Of a stretch of 64,000 nt of DNA, positions 2,263-19,747 are shown one piece after another; position 1 is the stretch's first letter, and each line of letters starts with the position of its first letter. The DNA lies in contig NZ_CP134867.1 in NCBI RefSeq assembly GCF_031954525.1, forward strand, positions 4,402,001 to 4,466,000. Direction: 5' to 3'. A program made the position numbers and the translations under genes. The notes below the pieces were generated by a model. That model was given only the letters and a program-made list of their open reading frames with translations. It ran no database searches and was not told the origin of the DNA. Source of the DNA: Dyella sp. BiH032 (GTDB lineage Bacteria > Pseudomonadota > Gammaproteobacteria > Xanthomonadales > Rhodanobacteraceae).

Positions 2263-3147
2263 ATGCACGACGAATTGCTCGAGCATTTCCCCCTTCTAAT
2301 ACTTCCCGCCTCATTTCCCGCCAAATACGATCAGGACTCCCTGAAGTCCTACCTCGCTGGTTTCGCGCTCGATGGCGCGCCAGCAGCCGAACTCGCCAAC
2401 TACCTCAATGAGGACTTCCTGCGCTTTGTCCACACTTTGGCACTCGTTCCTGAGGGCCGCAAGCGGCTACTCGAAATTGGCGCAAATCCCTACTTCACGA
2501 CACTGCTGCTTAAGAAATTCCGCCAACACGAGATCCATTGCACCAACTACTTCGGCATTCAAGGTGGTGGTGGCCGTCAAACCATGAACAACGCCGATAG
2601 TGGTGAATATTTTACGTTCGACTTTCTCAACAATAATGTCGACCTGGAAGACCTACCCTTCGAAGGGCACTTCGATATTATTTTGTTCTGCGAAGTAATC
2701 GAGCATCTCGTAGGCGATCCATTGGGTGCGCTTCTACGGATCAAGAAAAAACTGACGCCCGGCGGGTTGCTCATTCTCTCGACCCCGAATGTAAACCGAC
2801 TCGAAAATATCGCAAAAATGATGGCCGGCCAGAACATCTATGACCCGATCTCTGGCTATGGAGTCTACGGGCGACACAACCGGGAATATAATAAGCATGA
2901 ACTCTTTCTTATGCTCGACCATGCTGGTTTCGACCTGGAAGTTATATTTTCGTCCGACGTCCATGAAAACCATTCGAACATCTACTTCCCAATTACCACC
3001 ATTGCGAAAAGTATATTTTCCATTCCAAATCGTTGCTACGATCTTGGACAGTATATTTTCCTGCGCGCCCGCAATACTCGCCCGGCCAAACTTGGAAAAC
3101 CCGGCTGGCTCTATCGCAGCTTTCCTGAATCAGAATTCAGCAACTGA
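2263..3147 (+). CDS. Class I SAM-dependent methyltransferase, A/T-rich
   Basis: This 294-residue protein starts at ATG 2263 with GGAGGG upstream. It has a methyltransferase core: LLEIGANP for SAM binding, DIILFCEVIEHL as the post-II motif, and LTPGGLLILSTPN as motif III, the usual layout of the Methyltransf_11/23 families. The substrate is unknown; in this setting a sugar or glycan methylation is likely. The coding sequence is clearly richer in A and T than its neighbours, with many AAT, ATA and TTT codons in the second half, which suggests recent acquisition. It stands alone between the divergent UXS gene and manC, 54 nt before the manC start, and could be co-transcribed with manC. Confidence 0.78.
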   Translation: MHDELLEHFPLLILPASFPAKYDQDSLKSYLAGFALDGAPAAELANYLNEDFLRFVHTLALVPEGRKRLLEIGANPYFTTLLLKKFRQHEIHCTNYFGIQGGGGRQTMNNADSGEYFTFDFLNNNVDLEDLPFEGHFDIILFCEVIEHLVGDPLGALLRIKKKLTPGGLLILSTPNVNRLENIAKMMAGQNIYDPISGYGVYGRHNREYNKHELFLMLDHAGFDLEVIFSSDVHENHSNIYFPITTIAKSIFSIPNRCYDLGQYIFLRARNTRPAKLGKPGWLYRSFPESEFSN

Positions 3148-3163
3148 GCTTCGCGCGAACACG

Positions 3164-3169
3164 TATAAT
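3164..3169 (+). promoter_or_regulatory. Candidate -10 box upstream of manC
   Basis: A perfect TATAAT lies 33 nt before the manC start in an otherwise short gap. No good -35 hexamer is seen at the expected spacing, and the box is flanked by CTTCGC (3149-3154) and GCGAAG (3171-3176), a short inverted repeat that could be an operator. Read-through from the methyltransferase is an alternative. Confidence 0.35.
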
Positions 3170-3201
3170 TGCGAAGTTTAAGTCTGATTGGAGCGAAATA
3201 C

Positions 3202-4614
3202 ATGATCCTTCCGGTCATCCTCAGCGGTGGCAGCGGGACACGGCTGTGGCCACTGTCCCGCAAGAATCGGCCCAAGCAGTTTCTAGCCCTGGTCGGTGAG
3301 CAGACGCTGTTCCAGCGGACTGTCGATCGTACGCGCAAGCTCGGCCAGGCTGGCGCGCCCATCGTGGTCTGCAGCGAGGAGCATCGCTTCACCGTTGCCG
3401 AGCAATTGCAAGAGCTGGGCGTCACCGACGCATCGATTCTGCTGGAGCCGGCGGCGCGCAATACCGCTCCGGCCATCGCCCTGGCTGCCATGCAGGCGCT
3501 CAAAGCAGACCCGGACGCCGTACTGCTAGTGCTCCCCGCCGATCATTTGATCGGCGAGGAAGGGGGCTTCATCGAGGCGGTCGAGCACGCTCAGCCGCTG
3601 GCCGTCGAGGGTTGGCTGGTTACCTTTGGCATTCGCCCCGAGGCGCCCGAGACCGGCTTTGGCTATATCAAGCGGGCGGAGGCGGTCGGCGAGTTCGGCT
3701 TCAAGGTCGCACAGTTCGTCGAGAAGCCCAATGCCGAGCTCGCGGCCAAGTACGTCGCCAGCGGCGATTTCGACTGGAACTCAGGCATGTTCCTGTTCAA
3801 GGCCGCCCGTTTCCTGGACGAACTGAAGGCGCATTCGCCGGCTATCTACCAGGCCATCGGCGAAGTCTTCGCGACCGCCAAGCCGGACCTGGACTTCGTG
3901 CGCTTCGACCAGGAAACCATGCGCAATGTGCCGGAGGACTCCATCGACTATGCCGTGATGGAGAAGACCTCGCGCGCCGCTGTCGTACCGGTGGCCTGCC
4001 GCTGGAGCGATATCGGCTCCTGGTCGGCCCTGTGGGAGGCATCAGAGAAGGACGACGACGGCAACGCTACCCAGGGCGACGTATTCACCTTCGACACGCG
4101 CAATACCCTAGTGCGCTCGCACGACCGCCACATGGTGGCGACGGTCGGCCTTGACGATATCGTCATCGTATCCACCCCGGATGCCACCCTGGTCGCCGCG
4201 CGCGACAAAGTGCAGCACGTCAAGCAGGTGGTGGACACGCTCAATCGCACCGGCCGCACCGAGCATCTGTCGCACCGCCAAGTGCACCGTCCTTGGGGCA
4301 GCTATGACTCCATCGATATGGGCGACCGCTTCCAGGTGAAGCGCATCGTGGTCAAGCCCAATTCGGTGCTGAGCCTGCAGATGCATCACCATCGCGCCGA
4401 ACACTGGATCGTAGTATCCGGCACAGCCGAGGTGACCTGCGGCGACAAGGTGTTCTTGCTGACCGAAAACCAAAGTACTTATATCCCGCTCGGCGTCACG
4501 CACCGCCTGCGCAACGTCGGCAAGGTGCCGCTGGAGCTGATCGAAGTGCAATCTGGCAGCTATCTGGGGGAGGACGATATCGTCCGCTTCGACGACGTCT
4601 ACGGCCGCGCCTGA
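3202..4614 (+). CDS. manC: Mannose-1-phosphate guanylyltransferase / mannose-6-phosphate isomerase
   Basis: The 470-residue protein has the length of the bifunctional type II enzymes (XanB, AlgA, ManC). The N-terminal nucleotidyltransferase domain begins with GGSGTRLWPLSR and carries the FVEKPN motif. The C-terminal cupin domain has the isomerase signature QMHHHRAEHWIVVSGTAEV. It converts fructose-6-P to mannose-6-P and, after a mutase step, mannose-1-P plus GTP to GDP-mannose, the precursor for the gmd/rmd branch across the terminator. ATG 3202 is preceded by GGAGCG at 7 nt. The start 33 nt earlier in the same frame has no ribosome site. Confidence 0.95.
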   Translation: MILPVILSGGSGTRLWPLSRKNRPKQFLALVGEQTLFQRTVDRTRKLGQAGAPIVVCSEEHRFTVAEQLQELGVTDASILLEPAARNTAPAIALAAMQALKADPDAVLLVLPADHLIGEEGGFIEAVEHAQPLAVEGWLVTFGIRPEAPETGFGYIKRAEAVGEFGFKVAQFVEKPNAELAAKYVASGDFDWNSGMFLFKAARFLDELKAHSPAIYQAIGEVFATAKPDLDFVRFDQETMRNVPEDSIDYAVMEKTSRAAVVPVACRWSDIGSWSALWEASEKDDDGNATQGDVFTFDTRNTLVRSHDRHMVATVGLDDIVIVSTPDATLVAARDKVQHVKQVVDTLNRTGRTEHLSHRQVHRPWGSYDSIDMGDRFQVKRIVVKPNSVLSLQMHHHRAEHWIVVSGTAEVTCGDKVFLLTENQSTYIPLGVTHRLRNVGKVPLELIEVQSGSYLGEDDIVRFDDVYGRA

Positions 4615-4639: not shown

Positions 4640-4662
4640 GCGGGCCTAGGCCCGCTTTTTTT
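4640..4662. terminator. Bidirectional terminator between convergent manC and manB
   Basis: A perfect inverted repeat GCGGGCC-TA-GGCCCGC at 4640-4655 is followed by seven T on the plus strand. The minus strand side has a mixed CTCTTTCTTT tract. It ends manC transcription and overlaps the stop of the leftward manB gene, so it can serve both converging units. Confidence 0.9.
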
Positions 4663-6014
4663 CATGCCATCGTGCCGCCGATCAGCTGCCGCAGTTCCGC
4701 GGTGCGTGCCTCCATCAGCGCGACGTCCCCGCGTGACTCGACATTCAGGCGCAGCAAGGGCTCGGTGTTGGACGAGCGCAGGTTGAAGCGCCAGCTGCCG
4801 AACGACATGCTTACGCCATCGACTTGCTCGACCAACTCGGCGTCCTTGACGTAGTGCGCCATGATGCGCTCGACCGTCGCCTTCGCGTCGCCGACGCGGA
4901 AGTTCATCTCTCCGCTGCATGGATACGCCGCCATGCACTCGGCCAGCATTGCGTCCAGCGCAACGCCGGTCTTGCAGATGCGCTCAGCTACCAACAGCCA
5001 GGGAATCATGCCCGAATCGCAATAGGCGAAATCGCGGAAGTAGTGGTGCGCACTCATCTCGCCGCCGTACACGGCATCTTCGGCGCGCATGCGCTCTTTG
5101 ATGAAGGCATGACCAGTCTTGCTCTGCACTGCCACGCCACCTGCTTTTGAGACCATGTCGATGGTGTTCCAGGTCAGCCGCGGGTCGTGGATGATGCGCG
5201 CGCTGGGATGCTTCTCCAGCAGCTGCGCCGCCAGCGGGCCGACAATGTAGTAGCCCTCGATAAAGGCACCGTACTTATCGAACAGGAAGCAGCGATCGAA
5301 GTCCCCGTCCCAGGCGATACCCAGGTCGGCGCCCGATGCCTTCACCGCATCCGAGGTGGTTGCGCGGTTTTCCGGCAGCAGCGGATTGGGGATACCGTTA
5401 GGGAAACGGCCATCGGGCTCATGGTTGACCCGCACGAAGCTGAAAGGCAGATGCGCTTCCAGTAGATCGATGATCGCGCCCGCACCACCATTGCCGGCGT
5501 TCACCACTATCTTCAGTGGCCGCAGTTTGGCCACGTCGACATAGCTCAGCAGATGCGCGATATAGGCTGACTTGTCATGGTCCTGGCGCAGGGTACCCAG
5601 CGTGACCGCAGCCTCGCCGAACTCATTATCTTCCACCATGCGTTCGATATCACGCAGGCCTGTGTCGCCGCTGATCGGCTTGCTGTCCTCGCGGACTAGC
5701 TTCATGCCGTTGTAGTCGATCGGATTATGACTGGCGGTCACCATAATGCCGCCGGCGACCCGGCGGTGCGCGGTCTGGAAATACACTTCTTCGGTGCCGC
5801 ACAGGCCGATGTCGATGACGTTACGCCCTTCATCCATCAGGCCGCGCGCCAGCTCCTTGGTCAGCACGGGGCTGTCCAGGCGGATGTCGTAACCCACCAC
5901 GACGTCGCCCGCACTGACGGTGCGCGCGAACGCACGGCCGATGCGGTAGGCCACATCGACATTGAGTTCATCGGGCACGCGGCCGCGAATGTCGTAAGCC
6001 TTGAAACATTTCAT
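4662..6014 (-). CDS. manB: Phosphomannomutase / phosphoglucomutase (XanA/AlgC type)
   Basis: A 450-residue alpha-D-phosphohexomutase. Key marks are the N-terminal KAYDIRG, the phosphoserine loop TASHNP, the metal loop DGDFDRCF, the sugar-binding GEMSAHHYF, and the C-terminal RSSNTEP phosphate-binding motif. It interconverts mannose-6-P and mannose-1-P (and usually glucose-6-P and glucose-1-P), feeding manC and also rfbA. It is last in the minus-strand wzm-wzt-gmd-rmd run, 16 nt after rmd, and its stop lies in the shared terminator. Confidence 0.94.
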
Positions 6015-6030: not shown

Positions 6031-8056
<2,026 letters not shown>

Positions 8057-11000
8057 CTAATGCACTGCTGCGACGGCCATGGTGCTGAATGAGAGGCTGG
8101 CATCCGCGTCGACCATGATGCGAATCCGCAGATCGCGGACGTCCTCCTTGACACGCACCTGCACCTCAGCGATTACCCCTTCGCCGGGCGCGAGTGAAGC
8201 CGAAGCCAGACGCCAGGCGCCGTCATGGGCCTCCACGTCCACCCAGGCCATACCCTCGGCACCAAGTCGCGCTCCCTCGACCCGTACCACATAGTCGCCA
8301 GCGGTTATCTTAAACGGCGGCGTCGCAAACAACACGCCTGGCGCATTGAGCGAAACTCGCTGCCCTCGCACGAGCTGACCGGTCGTGGTCTGCGCGCGGT
8401 AATCCGACGCGGCGAAATAACGGTCGCTGCCTGGCTCCCAGCTGGTATACCAATTGCCGCCCACAGCCACCTCTTCGAGCTGTTTGGCGCTCTGCTTCCA
8501 GGTCAGCCACGGCAAGCCCTTCGATACGGGTGCCTGCCCTTGCCGGTCCAGCTCGAGCCAGCGTTCGATCGCATCGGCCATCGGCTCCGGCTGCATACCC
8601 GAGAAATAGAAGGCATGCTCACCCGCGACTTCCTGGAATACCGGCAGATCCCTAGCGATGATCGGGCGTCCGTACTGCGCCGCCTCGATCAACGGCAGGC
8701 CGAAACCTTCGCCCTCAGACGGCGCCAGCAGAGCCGAGGCCTGCTGGTACATCGCGATCAGCTGGCTATCGTTGGCGCGCTCCAGCCAGAATAGGCGCTT
8801 GCCCGCCTCCGGATGCTGGCGCAGCCGGCTGATCAAGGTCTCGACGCGCCAGCCAGGCTTGCCGATCAGCACCAAGTTGACTTGGTGCCCGCGTTCCCAC
8901 AGCCGTTCGAATGCCGACAACGTCTGCGCATGCCCCTTGCGAGGCTCAATCGTGCCGACGATCAGGAAGCTCGGTCGGCTGCCCAGATCGACCGGCAGAT
9001 CGCCGCTGTCATCCTGAATGTCGGCGCGCTGCACGATGTCCGCGCCCAAATGGAACCAGCCGATCTTCAGCGCGCGTCCGCGCGCCGGCATCGACTGTGG
9101 CAGCCAGCGCTTGAACTCATCGGCCACCGTGCGGGAAATGCAGATGATGCCGTCGGCCAGTTCCGCGATGGCTTCGTACCAGAGCCGGAACGTGGGCAAG
9201 CCGTTCTCGTCGAAACAATCGGGTCGGAGCAGCGGCAGCAAGTCGTATACGACGAAATGGATCGCCACGCCACTACTGCGCATACGGATGTAGGTGTGAC
9301 GCAGATACGGCACCAGATGCGCCGCCAGATCCAGCCCGACGAAGACATCGCTCTGGCGGAACTCGACCGGAAGATCCTCTGGCAAGGTCAGCCCGGCGTG
9401 GAAGCGGGCGGCACAGTAGCTGCGTGCGTAGCGGAACACGCCGTCAGGCTTGATATAGATGGGCTCGACTCGGTATCCGGACGGCGGGCTTGCGAGCAGC
9501 TCGGCAACGATATGCCGCACAACACGTTGGATGCCGGTCTTGGCGTCTTCGATCACCAGATGGGAAATGTCGACGTATAGCGTGCGCAACGTATCGCTTG
9601 CCGGCGCGTTGGCCGCAATCGCCATGGATAGCCGCCCGATCTCTTCGTGATTCCAGCGCGCGACACCCGGCGAGGTCACCGCTCTAGCGATCACCGCCGG
9701 CGTGCTGTAGCCAGTGGCGGATGCTTCGCGGGCCAAAGCCCAGGCCGGATCAAGGCAAGCCAGCGCACGTGCGGGAATGCTCTCGAAACTCTCCGCGCCG
9801 GAGCCGCTGGCTAGACCGAGTACGTGATAGCCGCCCCACCGATATAGCATCGCAACGAACACACTCAGATCTACCTTCGCCCAGGCAGCGAACAGCCTGG
9901 GCAGGGTCTTCTGGCCGAGCAGCAGCGTGACCGGGAATCCGCGCAGCGTGTCCAGCACGGCGCGCATGCCCTCGCTGTCGGTAACATGCACTAGGATCTC
10001 GTCGAATGCGGACGGCTCCAGCTCGCCCAGACCACGCTGGCGCCATGAAGACGGCACGGCCGCGTCACCCACAAGGCCGAAAACGTCCAGGCGCTCCGGC
10101 ACGAAGCCGAGCGCGCTTGCCACATCGCCCGCCTGCACCGGGTCCAGCGTCACCAGCGCGACAAGACGCGGCACGGCTTCCAAAGCCGCCAGCTCGACCG
10201 GAACGCGCGCGGCAAGCGCTTCCTCCAGCGCAAGCCATGCGCGCCTGGCCGACTCTTCCCAGGTAAAGCCCTTCGCGTGTCGCAGCGCATGTTCGCGCAT
10301 GCGCTGGCGGAACGGCTCATCGATTAGAGCCTGCTGCAGCTTGGTCGTGATGTCGCGCGCATCGTGCGGATTGAACAGCGCCTCCTCGACGCCGATCACC
10401 TCGGGCAGGCTGGTGGCCGCTGCGCCAATGACCACCGCGCCGCACGACATTGCTTCCAGCGCGGGCAGGCCGAAGCCCTCGTGGATCGAGGGGAAGACAT
10501 AAGTGGCGCAGGAGTTGTACAGCCGCACCAGATCCTCATCGGACACGAAGCCGGTGAACACCAGCTCGTCAACCGCCAGCCCGGCGCGCTCGCGCACGGC
10601 ATTGAGCTCGTTGCGCTCCTTGATGTCGATATTGCCCACCATCACCAGCTGGTGGGTTTCGCGCAGGCTGGCCGGCAGCGCGGCATAGGCGACGATCAGG
10701 GTTTCCAAATTCTTGCGCGGGTCGAAGCCGCCCGCATACATCACGAACGGCTTGTGGATGCCGTACTTGCGCCCCACCGAGGCGGCGCTCTCCACCTTGT
10801 CCAGCTGACGGAAGTTCGCGCCGACCGCGGCGGAAATATTCACCACCTTGTCGGGCGCCAGATCCAGCATCTGAATGGCTTCCGTGCGCGTCGACTCGGA
10901 AATGCCCAGCAGCAGATCGCAGCGGCGCAGGTGATCGACCTTGCGCATGTACCAGGCGGACTGCCCGTCGCGGGTCAGATACACCTCCGGCATGGCCAGC

Positions 11001-11422
11001 GGAATCAGATCGAACAGGATCGCCACCTGCAGGGCGGCCGAGTGCGCGGGCACCGAGGTCACCACCGAATCGACGAAGCCGTCGACCATGCTCGCCGTCA
11101 GCACGACATCGGCGCCGAGCGATGCCAGGAACGCCTCGCGCAGCCATTCGGCGACGAGCGAGCGCTCACTGTTTTCCGGATACATCGACGCGGTCGGGGC
11201 CAAGCTTTCCCAAGCGATCACCCGGTCTTCCGGCAGTATGCCGGCAAACAGATCGCGCACGGTGCCCACCGATTCGGGCATGGCACCATTCACCGCGATC
11301 CAGACTTCATGCTCGCCACGGGACCGCGCCAGCGCCAAGGCCAGCGAGGAGCAATAACGGCCAACGCCACGGATGCTCCCATCCGGCGATTGGCAAGCCT
11401 GCAGATCGATCACTACTTTCAT
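8057..11422 (-). CDS. Double GT4 glycosyltransferase with C-terminal beta-rich domain (WbdA-like polymerase candidate)
   Basis: This 1121-residue protein holds two GT-B (GT4) units. The first spans about 1-400 with the EX7E motif in HEGFGLPALEA (residues 314-324). The second spans about 615-995 with SEGEGFGLPLIEA (902-914). Between them lies about 200 residues without a clear GT motif. The last 120 residues look like a beta-sandwich with alternating short hydrophobic strands. No signal peptide or membrane helix is seen, so it acts in the cytoplasm, probably peripherally. Multi-GT4 proteins of this size (E. coli WbdA type) polymerise D-mannan; next to gmd/rmd and an ABC exporter, a D-mannan or D-rhamnan polymerase is likely. 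It starts 10 nt after the coiled-coil methyltransferase gene. Confidence 0.85.
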   Translation of the reverse strand: MKVVIDLQACQSPDGSIRGVGRYCSSLALALARSRGEHEVWIAVNGAMPESVGTVRDLFAGILPEDRVIAWESLAPTASMYPENSERSLVAEWLREAFLASLGADVVLTASMVDGFVDSVVTSVPAHSAALQVAILFDLIPLAMPEVYLTRDGQSAWYMRKVDHLRRCDLLLGISESTRTEAIQMLDLAPDKVVNISAAVGANFRQLDKVESAASVGRKYGIHKPFVMYAGGFDPRKNLETLIVAYAALPASLRETHQLVMVGNIDIKERNELNAVRERAGLAVDELVFTGFVSDEDLVRLYNSCATYVFPSIHEGFGLPALEAMSCGAVVIGAAATSLPEVIGVEEALFNPHDARDITTKLQQALIDEPFRQRMREHALRHAKGFTWEESARRAWLALEEALAARVPVELAALEAVPRLVALVTLDPVQAGDVASALGFVPERLDVFGLVGDAAVPSSWRQRGLGELEPSAFDEILVHVTDSEGMRAVLDTLRGFPVTLLLGQKTLPRLFAAWAKVDLSVFVAMLYRWGGYHVLGLASGSGAESFESIPARALACLDPAWALAREASATGYSTPAVIARAVTSPGVARWNHEEIGRLSMAIAANAPASDTLRTLYVDISHLVIEDAKTGIQRVVRHIVAELLASPPSGYRVEPIYIKPDGVFRYARSYCAARFHAGLTLPEDLPVEFRQSDVFVGLDLAAHLVPYLRHTYIRMRSSGVAIHFVVYDLLPLLRPDCFDENGLPTFRLWYEAIAELADGIICISRTVADEFKRWLPQSMPARGRALKIGWFHLGADIVQRADIQDDSGDLPVDLGSRPSFLIVGTIEPRKGHAQTLSAFERLWERGHQVNLVLIGKPGWRVETLISRLRQHPEAGKRLFWLERANDSQLIAMYQQASALLAPSEGEGFGLPLIEAAQYGRPIIARDLPVFQEVAGEHAFYFSGMQPEPMADAIERWLELDRQGQAPVSKGLPWLTWKQSAKQLEEVAVGGNWYTSWEPGSDRYFAASDYRAQTTTGQLVRGQRVSLNAPGVLFATPPFKITAGDYVVRVEGARLGAEGMAWVDVEAHDGAWRLASASLAPGEGVIAEVQVRVKEDVRDLRIRIMVDADASLSFSTMAVAAVH

Positions 11423-11432
11423 GCGGAACAGC

Positions 11433-12911
11433 TCATCCCAGTTGTTTCCGTCGCGCGATCACGCGCTTCAGCATCGCGTTCACCGCCGCGGCCTGCTCCG
11501 ACAGTTCCAGCGGCGCCACCAATGGGTTGACCGGTTGCGGAAACAGGAAGGTGCGGATACGCCGGCCCAGCATGGACTCCGGCCCCACGATCGTCCTGGC
11601 GCAGCGCCGGAACAGCGGTACGCGCAAGGCCGAGCGAACCAGCGGGCGCGCCGCGCGGGCGCCGCGCGCCACCAGCGGACGGCCCGTCCGCCATACCCAG
11701 CGCACGCCCTTCGCGGCAGTGAGTTTCACCGAGCGCACCGGTGCGGTCAGGCGCCACGAGGTGCTGTGCAGCGTCTCGTGCAGGCGTTGCTCCAGGGCCG
11801 CATGGGAGGAGCGCAAGGTCTCGATCTGCCGAAGCAAATCATGCTGGCGGTGCAGCAGGCTTTCGAGCTCGTCGCTGTTGCGCCGCTTGAAGCTGCTCAA
11901 GCGGCGCGCCACGTCCATGCGCATATCGTCGATTTCGCGCAGCAACCGGTCCCGCTCGGCACGATGCCCCGCCGCTTCGTCCACCAGCTTCGCCAGTTCC
12001 TGCGTATGCGCCGCCTGTGCGGACTGCAGCGCCTCGTGCAGGCTTTGATTGTCTTGTTCCATCGCCGCCAACCTGGAAACGCCATCGGCCTGCCACTGCT
12101 TGTAATGCTCATCCAGCACGGTCAAATGATTGGCAAGGCCAGCCACGGCATGCTGCGCCTCTGCCGCCTCGACTACGGCCTTGCGCAGGCGCACATGCGC
12201 CTCGTTGAGACCTTCATGCGCATCCTGCTCGCTCTTGCGCACGAAATCGTCGAAGACATTGGGCGGCAGGTCGAAGGCGCCAAGCAGCTCCGCGTGCTCT
12301 TGCGCCACGTAGTAGCGATTGAGCCCGTCGCGATAGGCCAGCCGGTAGGCGCGATCCGTCAGCAGGTGCTCCCATTCCTCGTGCACGCTGACTTGGCTGT
12401 TGGGCAAGGTGGCCTCGACCACCACGACCCAGGGCCGCACCCGCTCGAACGAACAGGAGGCCAGCACGCTGCGCTCGGCGCCTTCGCAATCGACCTTGAG
12501 GAAATGCACCTCGCCTGGCGCATGCTCGGCGAGCACCTCGTCGAGCGTGCGCGCAGGCACGCGATGGGCGATGACCTGATGGCCTTCGGCCCGGTGCCGC
12601 TCGGCGAACTCGCGGTCCCCCGTGGACAGACCGGTATCGGCGACCTCGAAGAGTTCGAGGAAACCGGCCTGCTCGGAGACCGCGATATTCAGATTCGTGT
12701 CGTGCGGGCGATCCTGCTCCAGCAGTTCGAACCAGTGGCGCACCGGCTCGACATTGATGCCGCGCCAGCCAAGCAGCGAGAATGCCTTGGTGACCGAGTC
12801 CTTGACCGGATGCTGGGCACCGACGTCCACATAGAAGCCATGGCGCACGTTCTTGAGCGCGCGATACAGCATGACGTCTTCGAAATTCTGCGCGTAGCTG
12901 ATGAAGGTCAT
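11433..12911 (-). CDS. FkbM-family methyltransferase fused to a long coiled coil (candidate chain terminator)
   Basis: A 492-residue protein. Residues 25-185 form an FkbM-type methyltransferase (VDVGAQHP at 28-35; LKVDCEGAE at 138-146). Residues 225-382 are strongly helical with heptad-like spacing and Glu/Gln/Lys-rich faces, a long coiled coil. After this comes SWRLTAPVR (385-393), a motif often seen after coiled coils in glycan-cluster proteins, and then a very basic C-terminal region of about 100 residues. Its ATG overlaps the wzt stop by 4 nt, and the polymerase candidate follows 10 nt later. The domain order and position match E. coli WbdD (methyltransferase, coiled-coil ruler, membrane and polymerase contacts), but no kinase domain is present and the methyltransferase family differs. 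Confidence 0.85.
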   Translation of the reverse strand: MTFISYAQNFEDVMLYRALKNVRHGFYVDVGAQHPVKDSVTKAFSLLGWRGINVEPVRHWFELLEQDRPHDTNLNIAVSEQAGFLELFEVADTGLSTGDREFAERHRAEGHQVIAHRVPARTLDEVLAEHAPGEVHFLKVDCEGAERSVLASCSFERVRPWVVVVEATLPNSQVSVHEEWEHLLTDRAYRLAYRDGLNRYYVAQEHAELLGAFDLPPNVFDDFVRKSEQDAHEGLNEAHVRLRKAVVEAAEAQHAVAGLANHLTVLDEHYKQWQADGVSRLAAMEQDNQSLHEALQSAQAAHTQELAKLVDEAAGHRAERDRLLREIDDMRMDVARRLSSFKRRNSDELESLLHRQHDLLRQIETLRSSHAALEQRLHETLHSTSWRLTAPVRSVKLTAAKGVRWVWRTGRPLVARGARAARPLVRSALRVPLFRRCARTIVGPESMLGRRIRTFLFPQPVNPLVAPLELSEQAAAVNAMLKRVIARRKQLG

Positions 12912-14137
12912 GGCTTCGGATCAACGGCAATCTGCGGGGGAAGCCAGGCACTGCCCACGAAATGCGGATGGGAGTGATTGGCCACGGTGAAGATCAGCGC
13001 CAGGTCGCGCCACTCGTAGTTGTCGACCAGGTGCGTATCGGTGCTGACCAGCGCGGTCGAGATCGAATAGCTGCCTGGCCCCAGATTCACGGCGAAGCGC
13101 GCGGCATAGCTGATCCGCTGTCCCTTGCGCGCGCCTTCCAGTACCTGCTTGGTGTGGTGCGTATTGGTGCCGAACATCGGCTGGCCCAGCCGGTCCTTGA
13201 TCATGTAGCCGAGCACCAGGCGCGGAATATCGGCGTTGAGGCGCACCTCGACCCGCAGCTCCACCTCCTGCCCGACATCGAGAAACTCGACCCGGTCGCC
13301 GTTGGCGGCATGCAGCTGGATCGACTCCACCACGGCTTCGAGCGTGCCGCTGACCGTCTGCATCTGCCCGCTTTCGAGCCGCTCGACCTTCATAGTGCTA
13401 TTTTCGCGCTCGGCGATCAGCGCGTTATAGGCATCCATGACTTCGACCGGATCGCCATCCTTCAGTACCTTGCCGGCCTGCAGCAGGATCGCGCGGTCGC
13501 ACATCGACTGGATGGCTGAGCTGTCGTGCGAGACGATCATCAGGCTGGTGCCCAGCTCGCGGTATTCCTTGATGCGCTTGAAGCATTTGTGCTGGAAGTA
13601 GGCATCGCCCACCGACAGCGCCTCGTCGACGATCAGGATGTCCGGCCGGAACGCGGTGGCCACGCTGAAAGCCACGCGCATCTGCATACCGCTGGAATAG
13701 GTGCGCACGTGCTCGTCGAAGTAATCGCCGATTTCCGCGAACGCCTCGATCTCGGGCATGGCCCGGTCGATCTGCTCCCTGGTGAAGCCCATCAGGCCAG
13801 CGGCGTGATAGACGTTCTGGCGGCCGGTCAGGTCCGGACTGAAGCCCATGCCCAGTTCGAGAATCGCCGCCACCCGTCCGTTCACCGACACGCTGCCCTC
13901 GGTCGGCATCAGCGTGCGCGTGATCAGCTTGAGCAAGGTGCTCTTGCCCGCGCCGTTCTGGCCGACGATGCCGATCGCCTCGCCGCGCAGGACCGCGAAG
14001 GAAATGCCCTTGACCACCCAATGCTCGCCGCGCGGGGTGACTTTCGCGCCGAACCAGGAGGCGAAGCGCTTCAATTCGCTGCCGTAGTCGCGGAAGGCCT
14101 TGCCCAGCCCTTCTACCTTCAGTACGTGGTCACTCAT
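12908..14137 (-). CDS. wzt: Wzt, ABC transporter ATPase with C-terminal glycan-binding domain
   Basis: 409 residues. The ATPase half has Walker A GQNGAGKST at 59-67, the signature YSSGMQMR at 147-154, and Walker B ILIVDEAL at 167-174. The extra C-terminal part (about 255-409, with GYMIKDRLGQP and FGTNTHH) fits the Wzt_C domain that recognises the modified non-reducing end of O-polysaccharides before export. Wzt proteins of this long type go with chains ended by a cap such as methyl. The true start is ATG 14137, overlapping the wzm stop by 4 nt; the frame is open far upstream but that part reads into wzm. It powers Wzm at the inner membrane. Confidence 0.94.
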   Translation of the reverse strand: MSDHVLKVEGLGKAFRDYGSELKRFASWFGAKVTPRGEHWVVKGISFAVLRGEAIGIVGQNGAGKSTLLKLITRTLMPTEGSVSVNGRVAAILELGMGFSPDLTGRQNVYHAAGLMGFTREQIDRAMPEIEAFAEIGDYFDEHVRTYSSGMQMRVAFSVATAFRPDILIVDEALSVGDAYFQHKCFKRIKEYRELGTSLMIVSHDSSAIQSMCDRAILLQAGKVLKDGDPVEVMDAYNALIAERENSTMKVERLESGQMQTVSGTLEAVVESIQLHAANGDRVEFLDVGQEVELRVEVRLNADIPRLVLGYMIKDRLGQPMFGTNTHHTKQVLEGARKGQRISYAARFAVNLGPGSYSISTALVSTDTHLVDNYEWRDLALIFTVANHSHPHFVGSAWLPPQIAVDPKP

Positions 14138-14928
14138 AGCACGTCGACCATCTCGGGGGCCGCCTTGCGGAACAGCACGAACGCCAGGCCGAGCAGGACC
14201 AGCGAACCGAGCGCGGTCCAGCCCAGCGCCACCAGATCCGGCGGGCGCCCGAACAGCATGACGTCCTGGAAACCGCCGACGATGTAGTACAGCGGGTTCA
14301 GCGCAATGATCTGGCCGAAACCGTGCGGCAGGATGCTGGGCATGTAGACGATCGGTGTCACCCAGAACCACAGTTGCAGCACCACCGCCATCACTTGGCC
14401 GACATCGCGCACAAACACGTTCAGCACGCCGAGCAGCAGCCCCAGGCCCAGCGAGAACGCCACGTTCACCGCCAGCAGCATCGGCAGCCACAGCAGCGCC
14501 AGTGTCGGCGGATGGCCGATGATGCCGAAAATCGCCACGGTGGCCACGAACAGCAAGAAGTTGCCGACCAGCGCGGTGCCCACGGCGACGAACGGCAAAC
14601 ATGCCTTGGGGAAGAAAATCTTCTTCATTAGGTTGCCGTTCTCAACGAACAGGTTGAGCGAGCGCTGCACGATTTCTACAAACAGCGACCAAGCCAGCAT
14701 GCCGGACATCAGATAAATAGGGTAGGCGTACTGATTGGTGACGCCTGGCAGCTTCGCGCCCATCACGCGGGACAGCACCAGCGAATAGATTGCCACCTGG
14801 GCTAGCGGCTGCAGGATCATCCACATCGCGCCCAGGCGACTGCGCGCGAAGCGCGCTTTCAGGTCGTTCTTGATTGAGGAGAGGATGAAGTGGCGGTAGC
14901 GCCAGACCGAGCGAAGCAGTTCGCTCAT
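14134..14928 (-). CDS. wzm: Wzm, ABC-2 type polysaccharide exporter permease
   Basis: A 264-residue inner-membrane protein with about six hydrophobic segments and the ABC-2 family pattern: a cytoplasmic N-terminus ending in RSRLGAMWMILQPL, then LFVEIVQRSLNLFVENGNLMKKIFFP, and PIVYMPSILP before LNPLYYIV. It forms the channel for undecaprenyl-linked polysaccharide together with Wzt. ATG 14928 is preceded by GGAGCGG. It lies 45 nt after the metB stop on the same strand, so the export operon may be co-transcribed with metB. Confidence 0.94.
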   Translation of the reverse strand: MSELLRSVWRYRHFILSSIKNDLKARFARSRLGAMWMILQPLAQVAIYSLVLSRVMGAKLPGVTNQYAYPIYLMSGMLAWSLFVEIVQRSLNLFVENGNLMKKIFFPKACLPFVAVGTALVGNFLLFVATVAIFGIIGHPPTLALLWLPMLLAVNVAFSLGLGLLLGVLNVFVRDVGQVMAVVLQLWFWVTPIVYMPSILPHGFGQIIALNPLYYIVGGFQDVMLFGRPPDLVALGWTALGSLVLLGLAFVLFRKAAPEMVDVL

Positions 14929-14973: not shown

Positions 14974-16143
14974 TCAGCGAGCGAGTGCATGCGCCAGTTC
15001 CGCCTTCAGATCCTCGACGTTTTCGACGCCGACGGACAGACGGATCAAGCCATCGGAAATACCGAGCCGCTTGCGCGTGGCCAGCGGGATGGAGGCGTGG
15101 GTCATGATACCGGGATGCTCGATTAGGCTTTCGACGCCGCCAAGGGATTCAGCCAGAGCAAAGATCTCGCAACGCTCCAGCATCCTGCGCGCCGCACGCA
15201 CGCCGCCCTTCACTTCCGCCGAAATGATACCGCCGAACCCGTCCATCTGGCGGCGCGCCAGCGCATGCTGCGGGTGGGACTTCAGGCCGGGATAGATCAC
15301 CTTGTCGATGGCCGGATGCTGTTCCAGCCACTTGGCGATATCCAACGCGGATTCGCAATGCGCTTTCATGCGCAGATGCAGGGTCTTAAGGCCGCGCATG
15401 GCTAGGAACGAATCGAACGGACCGGCCACCGCGCCCACCGAGTTCTGTAGGAAGGCCATGCGCTGGGCCATTTCGTCATTAGCGGCGACCACGAGGCCGC
15501 CGACCATGTCCGAGTGGCCGTTGAGGTACTTCGTTGCCGAATGCAACACCAAATCCGCACCGAATTCGATCGGACGCTGTAGCATCGGAGAGCAAAAGGT
15601 ATTGTCGACGACGAGGATCAGGCCATGCTTCTTGGCGAAGCTGGCCAGCTTCGCCAGGTCAACCAGCTTGAGCATTGGATTGGTCGGCGTCTCTGCCCAG
15701 ATCATCCGCGTGTTCGGCTTCAATGCAGCTTTGAGCGCGGCGGTGTCGTTGAGATCAACAAAGCTAAAATCCAGGCCCGCCGATTGGCGGCGCACTCGCT
15801 CGAACAGGCGATAGGTGCCGCCGTACAGATCGTCCATCGCGACGATGTGGCTGCCCGTCTCCAGCATGTCCAGCACCGTAGCCGCGCCAGCCAGACCGGA
15901 ACCGAACGCGAAACCGGCGATACCGCCTTCGAGATCCGCGACACAACGCTCATATGCCATGCGCGTAGGATTCTGCGTGCGCGAGTACTCATAACCCTTA
16001 TGCACGCCGGGACTGGCTTGCACATATGTCGACGTCGCGTAAATGGGCATCATAATCGCGCCGGTCGAAGGATCGGGCGCCTGGCCGGCGTGAATGGCTC
16101 GGGTACCAAGACCCATCCTGCTGGATTTCTTATTTGATTTCAT
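14974..16143 (-). CDS. metB: Cystathionine gamma-synthase/lyase family PLP enzyme
   Basis: A 389-residue Cys/Met-metabolism PLP enzyme with the cofactor lysine in SATKYLNGHSD, the N-terminal GTRAIHAGQAPD, and YEYSRTQNPTR. It acts in trans-sulfuration, joining or cleaving cystathionine; synthase and lyase cannot be separated by motifs alone. The start at ATG 16143 lacks a good ribosome site; ATG 16116 (MGLGTRAIHAG) is an alternative with an AGG too close. In Xanthomonas the variable LPS cluster begins beside metB, and here wzm follows it directly. A cystathionine beta-synthase lies at 22076-23446. Confidence 0.9.
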   Translation of the reverse strand: MKSNKKSSRMGLGTRAIHAGQAPDPSTGAIMMPIYATSTYVQASPGVHKGYEYSRTQNPTRMAYERCVADLEGGIAGFAFGSGLAGAATVLDMLETGSHIVAMDDLYGGTYRLFERVRRQSAGLDFSFVDLNDTAALKAALKPNTRMIWAETPTNPMLKLVDLAKLASFAKKHGLILVVDNTFCSPMLQRPIEFGADLVLHSATKYLNGHSDMVGGLVVAANDEMAQRMAFLQNSVGAVAGPFDSFLAMRGLKTLHLRMKAHCESALDIAKWLEQHPAIDKVIYPGLKSHPQHALARRQMDGFGGIISAEVKGGVRAARRMLERCEIFALAESLGGVESLIEHPGIMTHASIPLATRKRLGISDGLIRLSVGVENVEDLKAELAHALAR

Positions 16144-16205
16144 ATGGTTATATAAAAATCTGCGAGTCGACGGGCAGTCAGGGCAAAACCTGGGCAATCG
16201 TCCAT
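16140..16205 (-). CDS. Possible 21-codon leader ORF overlapping the metB start
   Basis: An ATG at 16205 opens a 21-codon frame whose TGA overlaps the metB ATG (ATATGA). AGGAGG lies 14 nt before this ATG, longer than ideal. The metB gene itself has no evident ribosome site, so translational coupling to a leader is a reasonable idea. It may also be chance; the peptide has no run of Met or Cys codons that would point to attenuation. Confidence 0.25.
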   Translation of the reverse strand: MDDCPGFALTARRLADFYITI

Positions 16206-16285
16206 AATAGCCTAGCTTTCCTCCTTTCCGCCTTGATTCGTCAAGCCTGAAGCAAGACCCAACGCCCTCCCCCTGTGTAACGCGC

Positions 16286-16300
16286 AATCCAAATTGGATT
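16286..16300. promoter_or_regulatory. Perfect inverted repeat in the metB/rfbB divergent region
   Basis: AATCCAA and TTGGATT form a 7-bp perfect inverted repeat with a 1-nt centre, 61 nt before rfbB. It is followed at once by GTCCATAAT; the same nonamer occurs at 16200-16208. One of these may be a -10 region and the palindrome an operator. The regulator is not known. Confidence 0.3.
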
Positions 16301-16360
16301 GTCCATAATGCTGAGTTCCATCTACAAGCCGACTGCCGGCGCCACCTCACCAGAGCGTAC

Positions 16361-17410
16361 ATGGCAACCATTCTTGTTACCGGCGGAGCCGGGTTCATTG
16401 GCGGCAACTTCGTCCTGCAAGCCGTCCATGCTGGCCACAAGGTCATCAATCTCGATAAGCTGACCTATGCAGGCAATCTCGCCACACTGTCCTCAGTGGC
16501 TAATCATCCAGGGCATCGCCTGGTCGAAGGCGACATTGGTGACCGCATATTGGTCGCCAGGCTACTGAAGGAGCATCAGCCGCAGGCGATCATCAACTTC
16601 GCTGCTGAATCCCATGTGGATCGTTCGATCGACGGTCCCGCCGCCTTCATCGAAACCAATGTTGTCGGCACGCTGGGCCTGCTCGAATGCGCACGCGACT
16701 ATTGGCGTGCTATGGGCGACACACCGCACGCCGCATCATTCCGGTTTCTTCACGTTTCTACTGACGAGGTATACGGCTCGCTCGGCGCCGAAGGACGCTT
16801 TCACGAAACGACGCCGTATGCGCCGAATTCGCCGTACTCCGCCTCGAAGGCGGCCTCGGACCATCTGGTGCGAGCTTTCCATCACACCTACGGATTGCCC
16901 ACGCTTACCACGAACTGCTCGAATAACTACGGGCCATATCAGTTCCCTGAAAAGTTGATCCCGCTGGTGATCCAGAAAGCGCTGAAGGGCGAGCTGCTAC
17001 CGGTATACGGCGATGGCCTAAACGTGCGCGACTGGTTGTTCGTGGAAGACCACTGCGAAGCGATCGCAAGGGTACTCGCGGGCGGTCGTCCTGGCGAAAC
17101 CTACAATGTCGGCGGCGACTCGGAACGCACCAATATCGATGTCGTGCGCACGATCTGCGAACTACTTGATGCACGCGTGCCGAAGGCAAAAGGAACCTAC
17201 GCGGATCAGATCACATTCGTTCGCGACCGCCCCGGGCATGATCGTCGGTATGCCATCGACGCATCCAAGCTTCGCGGCGAACTTGGATGGCAACCCAGAC
17301 ACGATTTCGTCACAGGCATGCGCCGCACCGTCGACTGGTACCTCGCCAACGAGGCATGGGTCGCCGGTATCCTCAACGGCAGTTATCGACTGGAGCGCCT
17401 CGGCCAATGA
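16361..17410 (+). CDS. rfbB: dTDP-glucose 4,6-dehydratase
   Basis: A 349-residue extended SDR with [10 protein letters not shown] at the N-terminus, STDEVYG, and the catalytic YSASKAASD, all typical of RmlB/RfbB. It makes dTDP-4-keto-6-deoxyglucose in dTDP-L-rhamnose synthesis. First gene of an rfbBACD run in which each gene overlaps the next by 4 nt. It is divergent from metB across a 217-bp gap. Confidence 0.96.
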
Positions 17411-18294
17411 CCCAAAGGAAAGGCATCATCCTTGCCGGTGGTTCAGGCACACGCCTTTATCCAATCACCCGTTCGGTGAGCAAGCAGCTCCTTCCGGTCT
17501 ACGACAAGCCGATGATCTATTACCCCCTGACCACGCTGATGCTGGCCGGGATTAGGGACATTCTGATCATCAACACGCCGCACGAGCAGAGCATGTTTCA
17601 GCGCCTGCTCGGTGATGGCTCGCAATGGGGTCTGCGGCTGGAGTACGTGGCACAGCCTTCGCCTGATGGTCTCGCCCAGGCCTTCATTCTTGGACGCAAT
17701 TTCCTCGATGGCGCGCCGAGCTGCCTGATCCTCGGCGATAACATCTTTCACGGCGAAGGTCTCACCGGACGCATGCTGCGCGCCAATGCGCGCAGGGAAG
17801 GCGCCACGGTATTCGGTTACTGGGTGCGTGATCCGGAACGCTATGGCGTAGCGGAGGTCGATGCCAGCGGCAAGGTCGTCGACATCGAGGAAAAACCCGC
17901 CAGGCCACGCTCCCACTACGCCATCACCGGCCTGTATTTCTACGACGGCACCGCTAGCGAGCGCGCTGCCGCACTGCGCCCTTCCGCCCGCGGTGAACTG
18001 GAAATCACCGATCTCAATCGGACCTATCTGCGTGATGGCGCGTTGCATCTCGAACAACTCGGACGCGGTTATGCCTGGCTCGATACCGGCACGCATGAGT
18101 CCATGGTCGAAGCCGGCAACTACATTCAGACGATCGAGAACCGCCAAGGCCTGAAAGTGGCCTGCCCAGAGGAGATCGCATTAATGCAGGGCTGGATCGA
18201 TGTGTCGCGCCTGCGCGAACTTGCCCAGCCGCTGGCCAAGACACAGTACGGCCAGTACCTTCTCCGACTCGCCGAACAGCATAGCAGCCGATGA
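17407..18294 (+). CDS. rfbA: Glucose-1-phosphate thymidylyltransferase
   Basis: 295 residues with [20 protein letters not shown], the RmlA nucleotide-binding signature, plus [12 protein letters not shown] and EKPARPRS. It makes dTDP-glucose, the substrate of rfbB. The start at ATG 17407 overlaps the rfbB stop (ATGA) and agrees with the family length; the frame is open upstream but that stretch lies inside rfbB. Glucose-1-P could come from the ManB/XanA mutase. Confidence 0.96.
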
Positions 18295-18848
18295 GACATA
18301 TCGACACACCACTGCCCGGAGTGGCCATCCTCGAACCAATAGTCCATGGCGACGACAGGGGTTTCTTCTTCGAGAGCTACAACCGCCAGACCTTCGTACA
18401 GCTCGGCATCGACGTTAATTTCGTGCAGAGCAACGTCTCGCGTTCCAAACGCGGCGTGCTGCGCGGCCTGCATTACCAGTGGCCGCGCCCGCAAGGCAAA
18501 CTGGTAAGCGTACTGGAAGGCGAGGTCTATGACGTGGCGGTCGATATCCGCCCGGATTCGCCCACCTTCCGCCAGCACACCGGCGCCATGCTTACCTCAG
18601 CCAACAAGCGGATGATGTGGATTCCGCCGGGTTATGCGCACGGCTTCTGCGTGCTCTCCGAGCATGCGCTGTTCGCCTACCAGTGTACTGAGCTGTACGA
18701 TCGCGCGGCGGATGCTTCGATCCGTTGGAACGATCCAGCCCTCATGATCGATTGGCCAGTGGCCTCGCCCGAGCTATCGAATAAGGATCTCGCAGCACCG
18801 CTCCTCGACGAAGTACCCCTCGAACGTCTGCCGGGCTATGCGCCGTGA
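18291..18848 (+). CDS. rfbC: dTDP-4-dehydrorhamnose 3,5-epimerase
   Basis: 185 residues with the RmlC cupin pattern: [28 protein letters not shown] with the catalytic His, and IPPGYAHGF. It epimerises the rfbB product at C3 and C5. Its ATG overlaps the rfbA stop by 4 nt. Confidence 0.96.
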
Positions 18849-19747
18849 AGGTATTGCTGCTCGGGGGCAACGGGCAGTTGGGAACCCATCTTCGATACAC
18901 CCTGTCTCCGCTGCAGGGCGAGGTGGTGGTAGCTACGCGTACTGGCGATCAAGACACGCTGGCCTGCGATATCAATGACAGCAGCGCACTGCGTGCGCTA
19001 TTGCGTGCGCAGCGACCTCATCTGGTGATCAATGCCGCCGCGTATACCTCCGTCGACAAAGCCGAAACGGAAGCCGAGCACGCATTCGCTATCAATGGCG
19101 AAGTACCGGGCATCATCGGCGGCACAGTCGCTGCCTGGAATGGCGCGGTCGTGCATTACTCCACTGATTACGTCTTTGACGGCCATGCGCGCACTCCTTA
19201 CGCGGAGTTCGATGTCACCGCGCCGCTTGGTGTCTATGGCGCCAGCAAGCTCGCTGGTGAGCAGGCGCTGGCATCCAGCGGCGCAGACTATCTGATAATA
19301 CGCACCGCATGGGTATACAGCCTGCACGGCAGAAACTTCCTCACTACCATGCTGCGTCTGGCTAGCGAACGATCTCTACTGCGTGTCGTCGACGACCAAC
19401 AAGGTACACCGACCAGCGCGCGCTTTCTTGCACATGCTACGGCCCACATCGCGAATGTGTGGATGGCAAAGTCCAACCGGCGCAAGCTGAGTGGCGTCTA
19501 TCACCTGACCAACGATGGCAATACTACTTGGTGTCGTTTTACCCGCGCAATCATGGAAGAAGCCATCGCGCTCGGACGACTTGAGCGCACTCCTGCGATT
19601 GAAGCCATTAGCACATCAGACTATCCGACGCCGGCCCAGCGTCCGCTTTATTCTGTGCTGTCATGCGCTCGGATTAAGCAGGCATTTTGCCTTGACATCC
19701 CGTCGTGGCAAGACGAATTGCACACGGTGCTTGCTGAAACAAGTTAG
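18845..19747 (+). CDS. rfbD: dTDP-4-dehydrorhamnose reductase
   Basis: A 300-residue SDR with GGNGQLGTHL at the N-terminus, DYVFDG, and the YGASKLAGE active site, the RmlD pattern. It makes dTDP-L-rhamnose, the last step of the pathway. It starts with GTG at 18845 overlapping the rfbC stop (GTGA). No clear terminator follows in the 305-bp gap before glmS. Confidence 0.95.
   Translation: MKVLLLGGNGQLGTHLRYTLSPLQGEVVVATRTGDQDTLACDINDSSALRALLRAQRPHLVINAAAYTSVDKAETEAEHAFAINGEVPGIIGGTVAAWNGAVVHYSTDYVFDGHARTPYAEFDVTAPLGVYGASKLAGEQALASSGADYLIIRTAWVYSLHGRNFLTTMLRLASERSLLRVVDDQQGTPTSARFLAHATAHIANVWMAKSNRRKLSGVYHLTNDGNTTWCRFTRAIMEEAIALGRLERTPAIEAISTSDYPTPAQRPLYSVLSCARIKQAFCLDIPSWQDELHTVLAETS

What the first reader, a model, noticed from the sequence alone, without database searches (positions are those of the whole stretch)
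8057..14928. Coiled-coil FkbM methyltransferase as possible chain-length ruler in an ABC-type O-antigen system
Seen: four genes in order wzm, long wzt, a methyltransferase with a coiled coil of about 155 residues and a basic C-terminus, then a 1121-residue double GT4. The first three overlap by 4 nt and the fourth follows after 10 nt. Known: E. coli O9a uses WbdD (methyltransferase, kinase, coiled-coil ruler) with the WbdA polymerase, and Wzt_C reads the cap. Inference: here a methyl-only cap made by an unrelated (FkbM) enzyme, fused to its own ruler, sets the length of a D-mannan or D-rhamnan. This fusion with an FkbM domain may be undescribed.
Basis: partly seen in the sequence, partly recalled or inferred. 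Interest (0 to 1): 0.78.

Follow-up and report, generated by a model that had tools for sequence, protein, structure and literature searches.

The report
Methyl-capping enzyme on a coiled-coil ruler
A bacterium seems to end its surface sugar chains with a methyl group placed by an enzyme mounted on a long protein rod that may measure chain length, the same device as in E. coli O8/O9 but with a different enzyme as its head, and relatives suggest that heads, rod lengths and the matching export reader are exchanged like parts of a kit.

Summary
Confirmed: wzm, wzt (with a cap-reading Wzt_C domain), an FkbM methyltransferase with a long coil, and a double GT4; two 4-nt overlaps, then a 10-nt gap. 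The gene content matches the E. coli O99 cluster and the GT4 is WbdA-like (37% and 46% in its halves); only the terminator's head differs. The FkbM protein shares with the O8, O9 and O99 terminators a coil ending in S-x-S-W-(R/M)-x-T plus a tail of 110-118 residues. (2) AlphaFold gives one helix 226-338. (3) In relatives coil length changes mainly by heptads: 15 of 26 length differences and 17 of 20 strong in-frame DNA duplications are multiples of 7 residues. Cap, ruler function and docking are untested at the bench. A new variant of a known kind; exchanged heads and the Trp/Arg reader code are the more novel part.

The parts
14134..14928 (-). [quoted passage not shown]
   Evidence: PF01061; 42-44% identical to E. 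coli O8/O9/O99 Wzm
12908..14137 (-). wzt, ATPase with C-terminal cap-reading domain (409 aa)
   Evidence: PF00005 and PF14524; 55% to O8 Wzt over residues 6-405; PDB 8dku (A. aeolicus) E 2e-84
12911..13405 (-). Wzt cap-reading domain, residues 245-409; Trp376 (codon at 13010-13012) aligns with the 3-O-methyl lid Trp362 of A. aeolicus Wzt
   Evidence: pocket described in PMC9445017 section 9
11433..12911 (-). FkbM methyltransferase with coil and basic C-terminal module (492 aa): proposed chain terminator
   Evidence: PF05050 95.3 bits, TIGR01444 63.6 bits
12246..12911 (-). FkbM catalytic head, residues 1-222
   Evidence: AlphaFold block pLDDT 88-98; D29, G31, A32, P35, K139, D141, E143, G144 invariant in 50 aligned homologues
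11766..12236 (-). coil, residues 226-382 (helix 226-338): proposed molecular ruler
   Evidence: length changes mainly by heptads in relatives
11733..11765 (-). STSWRLTAPVR motif, residues 383-393; the only match of the DNA pattern for this motif in the genome
   Evidence: same motif type in the E. coli O8, O9 and O99 terminators
11436..11732 (-). basic helical C-terminal tail, residues 394-492: proposed membrane and polymerase docking module
   Evidence: helices 390-429, 432-441, 447-456, 472-491; in relatives motif-to-end median 111 (sd 40, n 60) against linker median 109 (sd 102, n 75)
8057..11422 (-). WbdA-like dual GT4 polymerase (1121 aa), about 160-200 aa between the modules and about 140 aa after the second
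   Evidence: residues 1-433 36.8% and 594-982 45.7% to WbdA of O9; PF00534, two stretches
6932..8020 (-). gmd, GDP-mannose 4,6-dehydratase
   Evidence: TIGR01472 485 bits; 78% to O99 Gmd
6031..6954 (-). rmd-like reductase (GDP-D-rhamnose)
   Evidence: 54.5% to the gene after gmd in the E. coli O99 record
4662..6014 (-). phosphomannomutase (manB type)
   Evidence: 61% to O99 CpsG
3169..4614 (+). manC/manA, mannose-1-P guanylyltransferase / mannose-6-P isomerase
   Evidence: TIGR01479 705 bits; 50.5% to O99

Best explanation
An ABC-transporter-dependent O-antigen (most likely a D-rhamnan) whose dual-module GT4 polymerase extends the lipid-linked chain at the membrane. The FkbM protein is the chain terminator: its C-terminal SWR module holds it at the membrane and at the polymerase, its coil (113-157 residues, about 17-23 nm if continuous) carries the FkbM head away from the membrane, and the head O-methylates the non-reducing end only of chains long enough to reach it. 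The methyl stops elongation and is the ticket that Wzt's C-terminal domain reads before export. SHOWN by computation: gene order, domains, predicted long helix, coil-end motif shared with WbdD, O8-type methyl-reading pocket, heptad-biased change of coil length in relatives. INFERRED: catalysis, site of methylation, docking, oligomer, length control, D-rhamnan.
For: Gene content equals the E. coli O99 cluster and order wzm-wzt-terminator-polymerase equals O8 and O9. Shared coil-end motif: window 383, O9 592, O8 308, O99 610 (SRSWMIT). O8 and O9 terminators themselves match only in this module (31-35%, E 1e-15; heads E 0.1 or worse), so heads are swapped on one chassis already within E. coli. 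Profiles of coil-end plus tail, FkbM vs WbdD: probability 98, E 2e-13, reversed control 0.1. Reader: Wzt NBD 60/58/58% but C-domain 48/21/18% to O8/O9/O99; Trp lid and the Asn313, His355, Arg304, Val380, Ala348 equivalents kept. 12 of 80 relatives are FkbM-GT fusions of 1000 residues or more, 11 of them with the motif. In 41 of 68 loci with more than 3 kb upstream, wzt ends within 120 nt of the FkbM head. In the family, FkbM proteins with coil and motif lie by Wzt_C in 4 of 5 loci, those without in 0 of 24 (Fisher P 2e-4). WbdD coil insertions/truncations lengthen/shorten chains (PMC5082667, passages).
Against: No biochemical evidence exists for this protein. Wzt His350 (contacts the C2 hydroxyl of 3-O-Me-Man) is Val in the window and in 41 of 51 FkbM loci, and the hinge Tyr233 aligns with Asn238 (by eye), so the cap may not be plain 3-O-methyl. 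20 of 68 FkbM relatives with flank have no wzt within 3 kb upstream; SWR-coil proteins also occur away from wzt. After the motif the FkbM and WbdD tails are hardly alike (probability 2.3), and by blastp window and WbdD modules match weakly (E 0.005-0.06). Of 26 coil-length differences 8 (8, 10, 10, 13, 47, 53, 81, 148) fit no usual coiled-coil step. WbdB/WbdC-type adaptor GTs gave only partial or weak matches in the genome. The AlphaFold helix is unsure from 331 on.
Confidence: 0.74

Rival explanations
1. The FkbM protein is the capping enzyme, but the coil is only a scaffold or oligomerisation rod that ties it to the membrane and polymerase; length is set otherwise (kinetics, stoichiometry).
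For: Proteins with coil-like stretches and the SWR motif also sit away from wzt. Coil length is very variable (linker from 32 residues, median 109, n = 75), which a tether would tolerate. Some FkbM genes beside wzt have little after the head (L039 316 aa, L054 354 aa).
Against: Nothing computed here separates the two; preserved heptad register is expected of any coiled coil. By analogy, WbdD coil indels do shift chain length (PMC5082667, passages).
Confidence: 0.17
2. The FkbM head methylates residues inside the chain or a nucleotide sugar rather than capping the end.
For: FkbM enzymes are a broad O-methyltransferase family (recalled).
Against: The Wzt reader keeps the methyl lid and is of the O8 type; the gene takes the place of WbdD; the head is at the far end of a rod from the SWR module.
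Confidence: 0.06
3. The FkbM protein only decorates and the true terminator is another protein (for example the methyltransferase at 1999-3147).
For: A second methyltransferase lies in the cluster region, 382 aa, Methyltransf_23, with a short weak match to the O8 head (59 residues, E 0.002).
Against: 1999-3147 is on the other strand, beyond manC, pmm, rmd and gmd, and has no SWR motif.
Confidence: 0.03

Closest known systems
E. coli O8 terminator (WbdD-O8, simple methyltransferase, 425 aa) with its Wzt
   Same: wzm-wzt-methyltransferase-coil-SWR-tail, then a large GT; Wzt 55% identical, same reader class
   Different: O8 head has no blastp match below E 1 to the FkbM head; polymannose instead of probable D-rhamnan; His350 kept in O8, Val here
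E. coli O9/O9a WbdD-WbdA (methyltransferase-kinase, trimeric coiled-coil ruler)
   Same: gene order, dual GT4 polymerase (37% and 46%), coil, SRSWRMT motif with 117 residues to the end
   Different: no kinase here; FkbM head; reader C-domain only 21% identical and with Trp where O9 has Arg
E. coli O99 cluster
   Same: manC, manB, wzm, wzt, terminator, dual GT4, gmd, rmd
   Different: its terminator is 44% identical to O9 WbdD over full length; reader of the Arg type
A. aeolicus WzmWzt with 3-O-methyl cap (PDB 8dku and others, PMC9445017)
   Same: Wzt match E 2e-84 over residues 37-403; methyl lid Trp and the Ala348, Asn313, Arg304, His355, Val380 equivalents; polymer of D-rhamnose and D-mannose
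   Different: His350 and Tyr233 equivalents not kept; that paper does not use the word methyltransferase, so its capping enzyme is not named there
K. pneumoniae O7 ORF6 and O12 WbbB (terminator-coil-GT-GT; PMC11231755 passages and part of the discussion)
   Same: terminator at the N-end, coil, polymerase modules at the C-end, as in the fused relatives found here
   Different: O7 head is a methyltransferase-kinase with a CBM, O12 a Kdo transferase; the word FkbM does not occur in that paper

Membership tests
Coiled-coil chain terminators of ABC-dependent O-polysaccharides (WbdD/WbbB/ORF6-O7 type) | Catalytic head at the N-end, far from the polymerase end | tested here: met
   FkbM domain within residues 1-222, coil after it
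Coiled-coil chain terminators of ABC-dependent O-polysaccharides (WbdD/WbbB/ORF6-O7 type) | Extended coiled coil between head and C-terminus | tested here: met
   Helix 226-338; Pro-free 218-390; heptad-biased length changes. Oligomer not tested
Coiled-coil chain terminators of ABC-dependent O-polysaccharides (WbdD/WbbB/ORF6-O7 type) | C-terminal membrane helix and polymerase docking site | tested here: inconclusive
   Motif shared with WbdD, basic helices predicted; similarity after the motif not significant; contacts not testable
Coiled-coil chain terminators of ABC-dependent O-polysaccharides (WbdD/WbbB/ORF6-O7 type) | Partner multi-module GT polymerase in the operon | tested here: met
   Adjacent WbdA-like dual GT4; fused in 12 of 80 relatives
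Coiled-coil chain terminators of ABC-dependent O-polysaccharides (WbdD/WbbB/ORF6-O7 type) | Wzt with cap-binding C-terminal domain | tested here: met
   PF14524 119.6 bits
Coiled-coil chain terminators of ABC-dependent O-polysaccharides (WbdD/WbbB/ORF6-O7 type) | Coil length sets modal chain length; head caps the non-reducing end | not testable with these tools
   needs mutants and LPS analysis
WbdD proper (orthologue) | Head homologous to the WbdD methyltransferase (and kinase) | tested here: not met
   Best blastp match between heads E 0.09; different Pfam families. It works like WbdD, it is not a WbdD by its head
FkbM methyltransferases (PF05050 / TIGR01444) | Score above curated cut-off and intact SAM region | tested here: met
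   95.3 vs 22.7 bits; 63.6 vs 37.7 bits; invariant residues in 50 homologues
3-O-methyl-reading Wzt domain (A. aeolicus/O8 type) | Hydrophobic methyl pocket with Trp lid (L300, T346, A348, W362) | tested here: met
   Met, Ser, Ala, Trp at these positions
3-O-methyl-reading Wzt domain (A. aeolicus/O8 type) | His350 to the C2 hydroxyl and Tyr233 of the hinge helix | tested here: not met
   Val364 and, by eye, Asn238: the cap may differ around C2. So a methyl-reading domain, not shown to be 3-O-methyl-reading

The most novel reading that the evidence does not exclude
Bacteria use one exchangeable terminator chassis (coil, S.SWR.T.P.R motif, basic tail, polymerase) and plug different capping heads into it: FkbM, other methyltransferases, methyltransferase-kinases, sulfotransferases and DUF4915 proteins. 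The transporter's reader changes with the head, and one residue, Trp versus Arg at the lid, tells a neutral methyl cap from an anionic (methyl-phosphate or sulfate) cap. Coil length is retuned by duplicating whole heptads, so related strains form a natural series of rulers whose O-antigen lengths can be predicted.
Probability: 0.55. Interest if true: 0.82.

Novelty: new variant of a known kind. Interest (0 to 1): 0.7.

Why it matters
How cells measure sugar chains is worked out in a few enteric serotypes. This variant suggests the device is far wider, with a different catalytic head, and gives a candidate sequence rule (Trp or Arg at the Wzt lid) for predicting cap chemistry from genomes. It also offers natural pairs of strains whose rulers differ by one heptad, which makes the ruler model testable without engineering, and it predicts sulfate-capped O-antigens.

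Tried and rejected
Fourier test at 3.5 over the whole linker was negative (0.63); only the halves are positive, and the head control reached 0.033. A search with the C-terminal module alone (residues 345-492) returned 3 proteins, all FkbM, so other heads on the chassis could not be found that way; a Wzt-anchored survey was used instead. Profile search of the PDB with the FkbM family gave nothing at E 0.01; Foldseek gave generic class I methyltransferases (best 4e2w, E 9e-5, TM 0.25-0.29). Scores of the wztC profile by head class are partly circular, since that profile was trained on FkbM loci; I rely on the trees and residue counts. The place of O8 among FkbM readers is not starred (88 with L052). 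Rows dropped: the tree used 90 of 117 Wzt rows (short Wzt, or no labelled head within 2 kb); of 67 Wzt_C matches the 13 weakest were not fetched. The label MT12_O7like is mine, by architecture; no K. pneumoniae sequence was compared, so 'Arg goes with methyl-phosphate' rests on O9 (and the 44%-identical O99) plus inference. Considered and rejected: annotation artefact; methyl-phosphate cap; plain mannan. The second AlphaFold job and the third protein search were not used. On re-reading I corrected counts (control matches, motif shares by head, long Wzt frames) and added; the odds stayed, because the motif turned out rarer on other heads (17 of 36) while O8 and O9 heads turned out unlike each other.

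Papers: PMC11231755 passages and part 1 of 2 of the discussion; PMC3482155, PMC5082667, PMC6379404 passages; PMC9445017 outline with abstract, passages, sections 9 and 12; the other papers listed by the searches were seen as listings only. The 2020 O-antigen review and the 2015 ruler paper are not held and are known to me by recall or citation.


Full report
OBSERVATION. The four genes are as described: wzm 14134-14928, wzt 12908-14137, FkbM protein 11433-12911, GT 8057-11422, all on the - strand, with two ATGA overlaps and a 10-nt gap. Pfam and NCBIfam name them as expected. Downstream on the same strand lie gmd, an rmd-like gene and a phosphomannomutase, and on the + strand manC/manA.

COMPARISON WITH E. 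COLI. E. coli HS (O9), an O8 and an O99 strain were read from annotated records. O8 and O9 have wzm-wzt-terminator-polymerase in the same order; O99 has manC-manB-wzm-wzt-methyltransferase-dual GT4-gmd-rmd, the gene content of this window. Identities: Gmd 78%, Rmd 54.5%, PMM 61%, ManC 50.5%, Wzm 42-44%, GT 37% and 46% to the two halves of O9 WbdA (35% and 42% to the O99 protein). That O99 is a D-rhamnan is recalled. The window's head has no good blastp match to the O8, O9 or O99 heads (best E 0.09).

SHARED CHASSIS. The FkbM protein and the O8, O9 and O99 terminators end their coils in the same motif type: window STSWRLTAPVR (383), O8 SRSWRITQPLR (308), O9 SRSWRMTKGYR (592), O99 SRSWMITKPYR (610), with 110-118 residues from motif to end. 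O8 and O9 terminators match each other only here (31-35%, E about 1e-15), not in their heads. Profiles of the FkbM and WbdD modules give probability 98, E 2e-13; reversed tails 0.1; but the parts after the motif alone give only 2.3, so the motif carries the match. Of 120 listed homologues 97 have the strict motif. A DNA pattern for the motif occurs once in this genome, in this protein; in 59 family genomes it has 73 matches against 13 for the reversed pattern (chance matches in both).

COIL. AlphaFold (50 sequences, mean pLDDT 82.4) gives a confident head, one helix 226-338 (unsure from 331), a weak helix 350-374, an unsure motif region and helices after it. At 1.5 A per residue this is 17 nm for the helix and 23.5 nm for the whole linker; a review gives about 20 nm for WbdD (PMC5082667, passages). 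Coil length is labile while register tends to be kept. Of 86 coil DNAs (window and relatives) 34 hold tandem arrays; with score 100 or more there are 21, of which 20 are in frame and 17 are multiples of 21 nt (P 3e-12 at 1/7). Codon shuffles that keep the heptad register give 0.2 such arrays per run (30 runs) and the heads none (3 at score 40 or more). Of 39 disjoint pairs with at least 80% head identity, 13 have equal coils and 26 differ, 15 of the 26 by a multiple of 7 (P 3e-7); of the other 11, three are 11, 11 and 18, usual coiled-coil steps, and eight are not (8, 10, 10, 13, 47, 53, 81, 148). The window's own coil has no array; its 86%-identical relative P0003 lacks exactly 11 residues there.

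READER. Wzt NBDs are equally close to O8, O9 and O99 (60, 58, 58%), but the C-terminal domain is 48% identical to O8 and 21% and 18% to O9 and O99. O8 WbdD is a simple methyltransferase, O9 a kinase-methyltransferase (PMC3482155, passages). The A. aeolicus Wzt domain was solved with 3-O-methyl-mannose; the methyl sits in a pocket of Leu300, Thr346, Ala348 and Trp362, and Trp362Leu essentially abolishes LPS binding (PMC9445017, section 9 and passages). The window has Met, Ser, Ala, Trp there, and keeps Asn313, Arg304, His355 and Val380. At the lid, over 90 Wzt rows: FkbM loci Trp 47 of 51 (Tyr in L024, L050, L055, L065); O8 Trp; MT23c 2 of 2 Trp; MT11 6 of 7 Trp; MT24 7 of 7 Trp; methyltransferase-kinase type 4 of 4 Arg (O9 and O99 among them); MT12 type 4 of 4 Arg; sulfotransferase 12 of 12 Arg; DUF4915 2 of 2 Arg. 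The O12 domain (5hno) has LDQRR in that stretch; that it reads Kdo is from PMC11231755 and recall. Rows of one class are related and are not independent events. Against a simple 3-O-methyl: His350 is Val here and in 41 of 51 FkbM loci.

HEADS ARE EXCHANGED. Of 67 Wzt_C matches in 59 family genomes, 53 (not the window, not the 13 weakest) were fetched. In 36 of the 53 the nearest labelled head within 2 kb of wzt is not FkbM, and 17 of these 36 proteins carry an S.SW(R/K/Q/M) motif after the head: Methyltransf_11 5 of 7, Methyltransf_24 1 of 7, Methyltransf_12/23 4 of 4, Methyltransf_23 at the C-end 0 of 2, Sulfotransfer_3 5 of 12, DUF4915 2 of 2, methyltransferase-kinase 0 of 2; FkbM 3 of 4, the fourth cut by the contig end. 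Classes were named by Pfam on representatives and extended by profiles built here. But O9/O99 have an NBD from an FkbM-rich starred set and a reader from the methyltransferase-kinase set, and the O8 and MT23c readers fall among FkbM readers although their heads are other methyltransferases.

CONTEXT. Twelve of 80 are FkbM-GT fusions of 1000 residues or more. In the family, 32 FkbM (PF05050) matches: with coil and motif, 4 of 5 loci lie by Wzt_C (a sixth, L086, is cut by the contig end and also lies by Wzt_C; the exception is L137); without the motif, 0 of 24 loci (26 matches; one, L138, has a wzt without Wzt_C) (Fisher P 2e-4). The chassis is not confined to wzt loci: of 18 further stretches around motif matches, 17 hold an SWR protein; 10 of these are 1441-1572 residues long with weak GT-like stretches and no wzt within 4-6 kb, three have sulfotransferase heads, one a Methyltransf_11 head.

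MECHANISM AND NOVELTY. Best reading: the dual GT4 makes the chain, the FkbM head at the end of the rod caps chains long enough to reach it, Wzt reads the methyl. It works like O8 WbdD; it is not a WbdD by its head. Coiled-coil terminators are described as widespread (PMC11231755). FkbM with wzt and wzm is in 0 held papers, FkbM with coiled-coil, O-antigen and chain length in 0; most subscription papers and the main review were not searchable. Hence a new variant of a known kind; exchanged heads, the lid code and heptad-wise ruler evolution are what I would follow up.

Noticed in passing
L108, L112-L114, L116-L118, L120-L124: Sulfotransferase-type heads (Sulfotransfer_3) on the protein right after wzt in 12 of 53 loci, 5 of them with the SWR motif; Wzt lid Arg in 12 of 12. 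Predicts sulfate-capped O-antigens.
   Followed up: partly
L119:3145-6453 and L126:3187-6435: DUF4915 head with SWR motif and GT part directly after wzt; the domain has no known function, so a new capping chemistry is possible.
   Followed up: no
L057:557-1543 and L059:10001-10975: Two very similar FkbM genes with a repeat tract in the coil (42-nt unit in L059) that differs in length and reading frame between them; assembly error or a switchable ruler.
   Followed up: no
   Followed up: partly
window 8057-8476 (- strand): About 140 aa on the WbdA-like GT after its match to WbdA ends; by eye it could be a beta-sandwich.
   Followed up: no
L082:5196-7985 (G000:C1:4387196-4389985): A second large GT4 protein (929 aa), about 12 kb left of the window start, matching an O99 WbdB-place GT twice; could supply an adaptor or a second polymer.
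   Followed up: no
L165-L171, L173, L174, L179 (L172 cut): A class of 1441-1572-residue proteins with coil-like stretch and SWR motif away from wzt, with weak GT-like stretches; role unknown.
   Followed up: partly
L137/L182 (FkbM protein, 464 aa): FkbM-coil-SWR protein in a genome with no Wzt_C match at E 0.001: an orphan terminator or another export route.
   Followed up: partly
window 14974-19747: Beside the cluster on the wzm side: a metB/metC-like gene (by eye, no search made) and rmlA- and rmlD-type genes.
   Followed up: no
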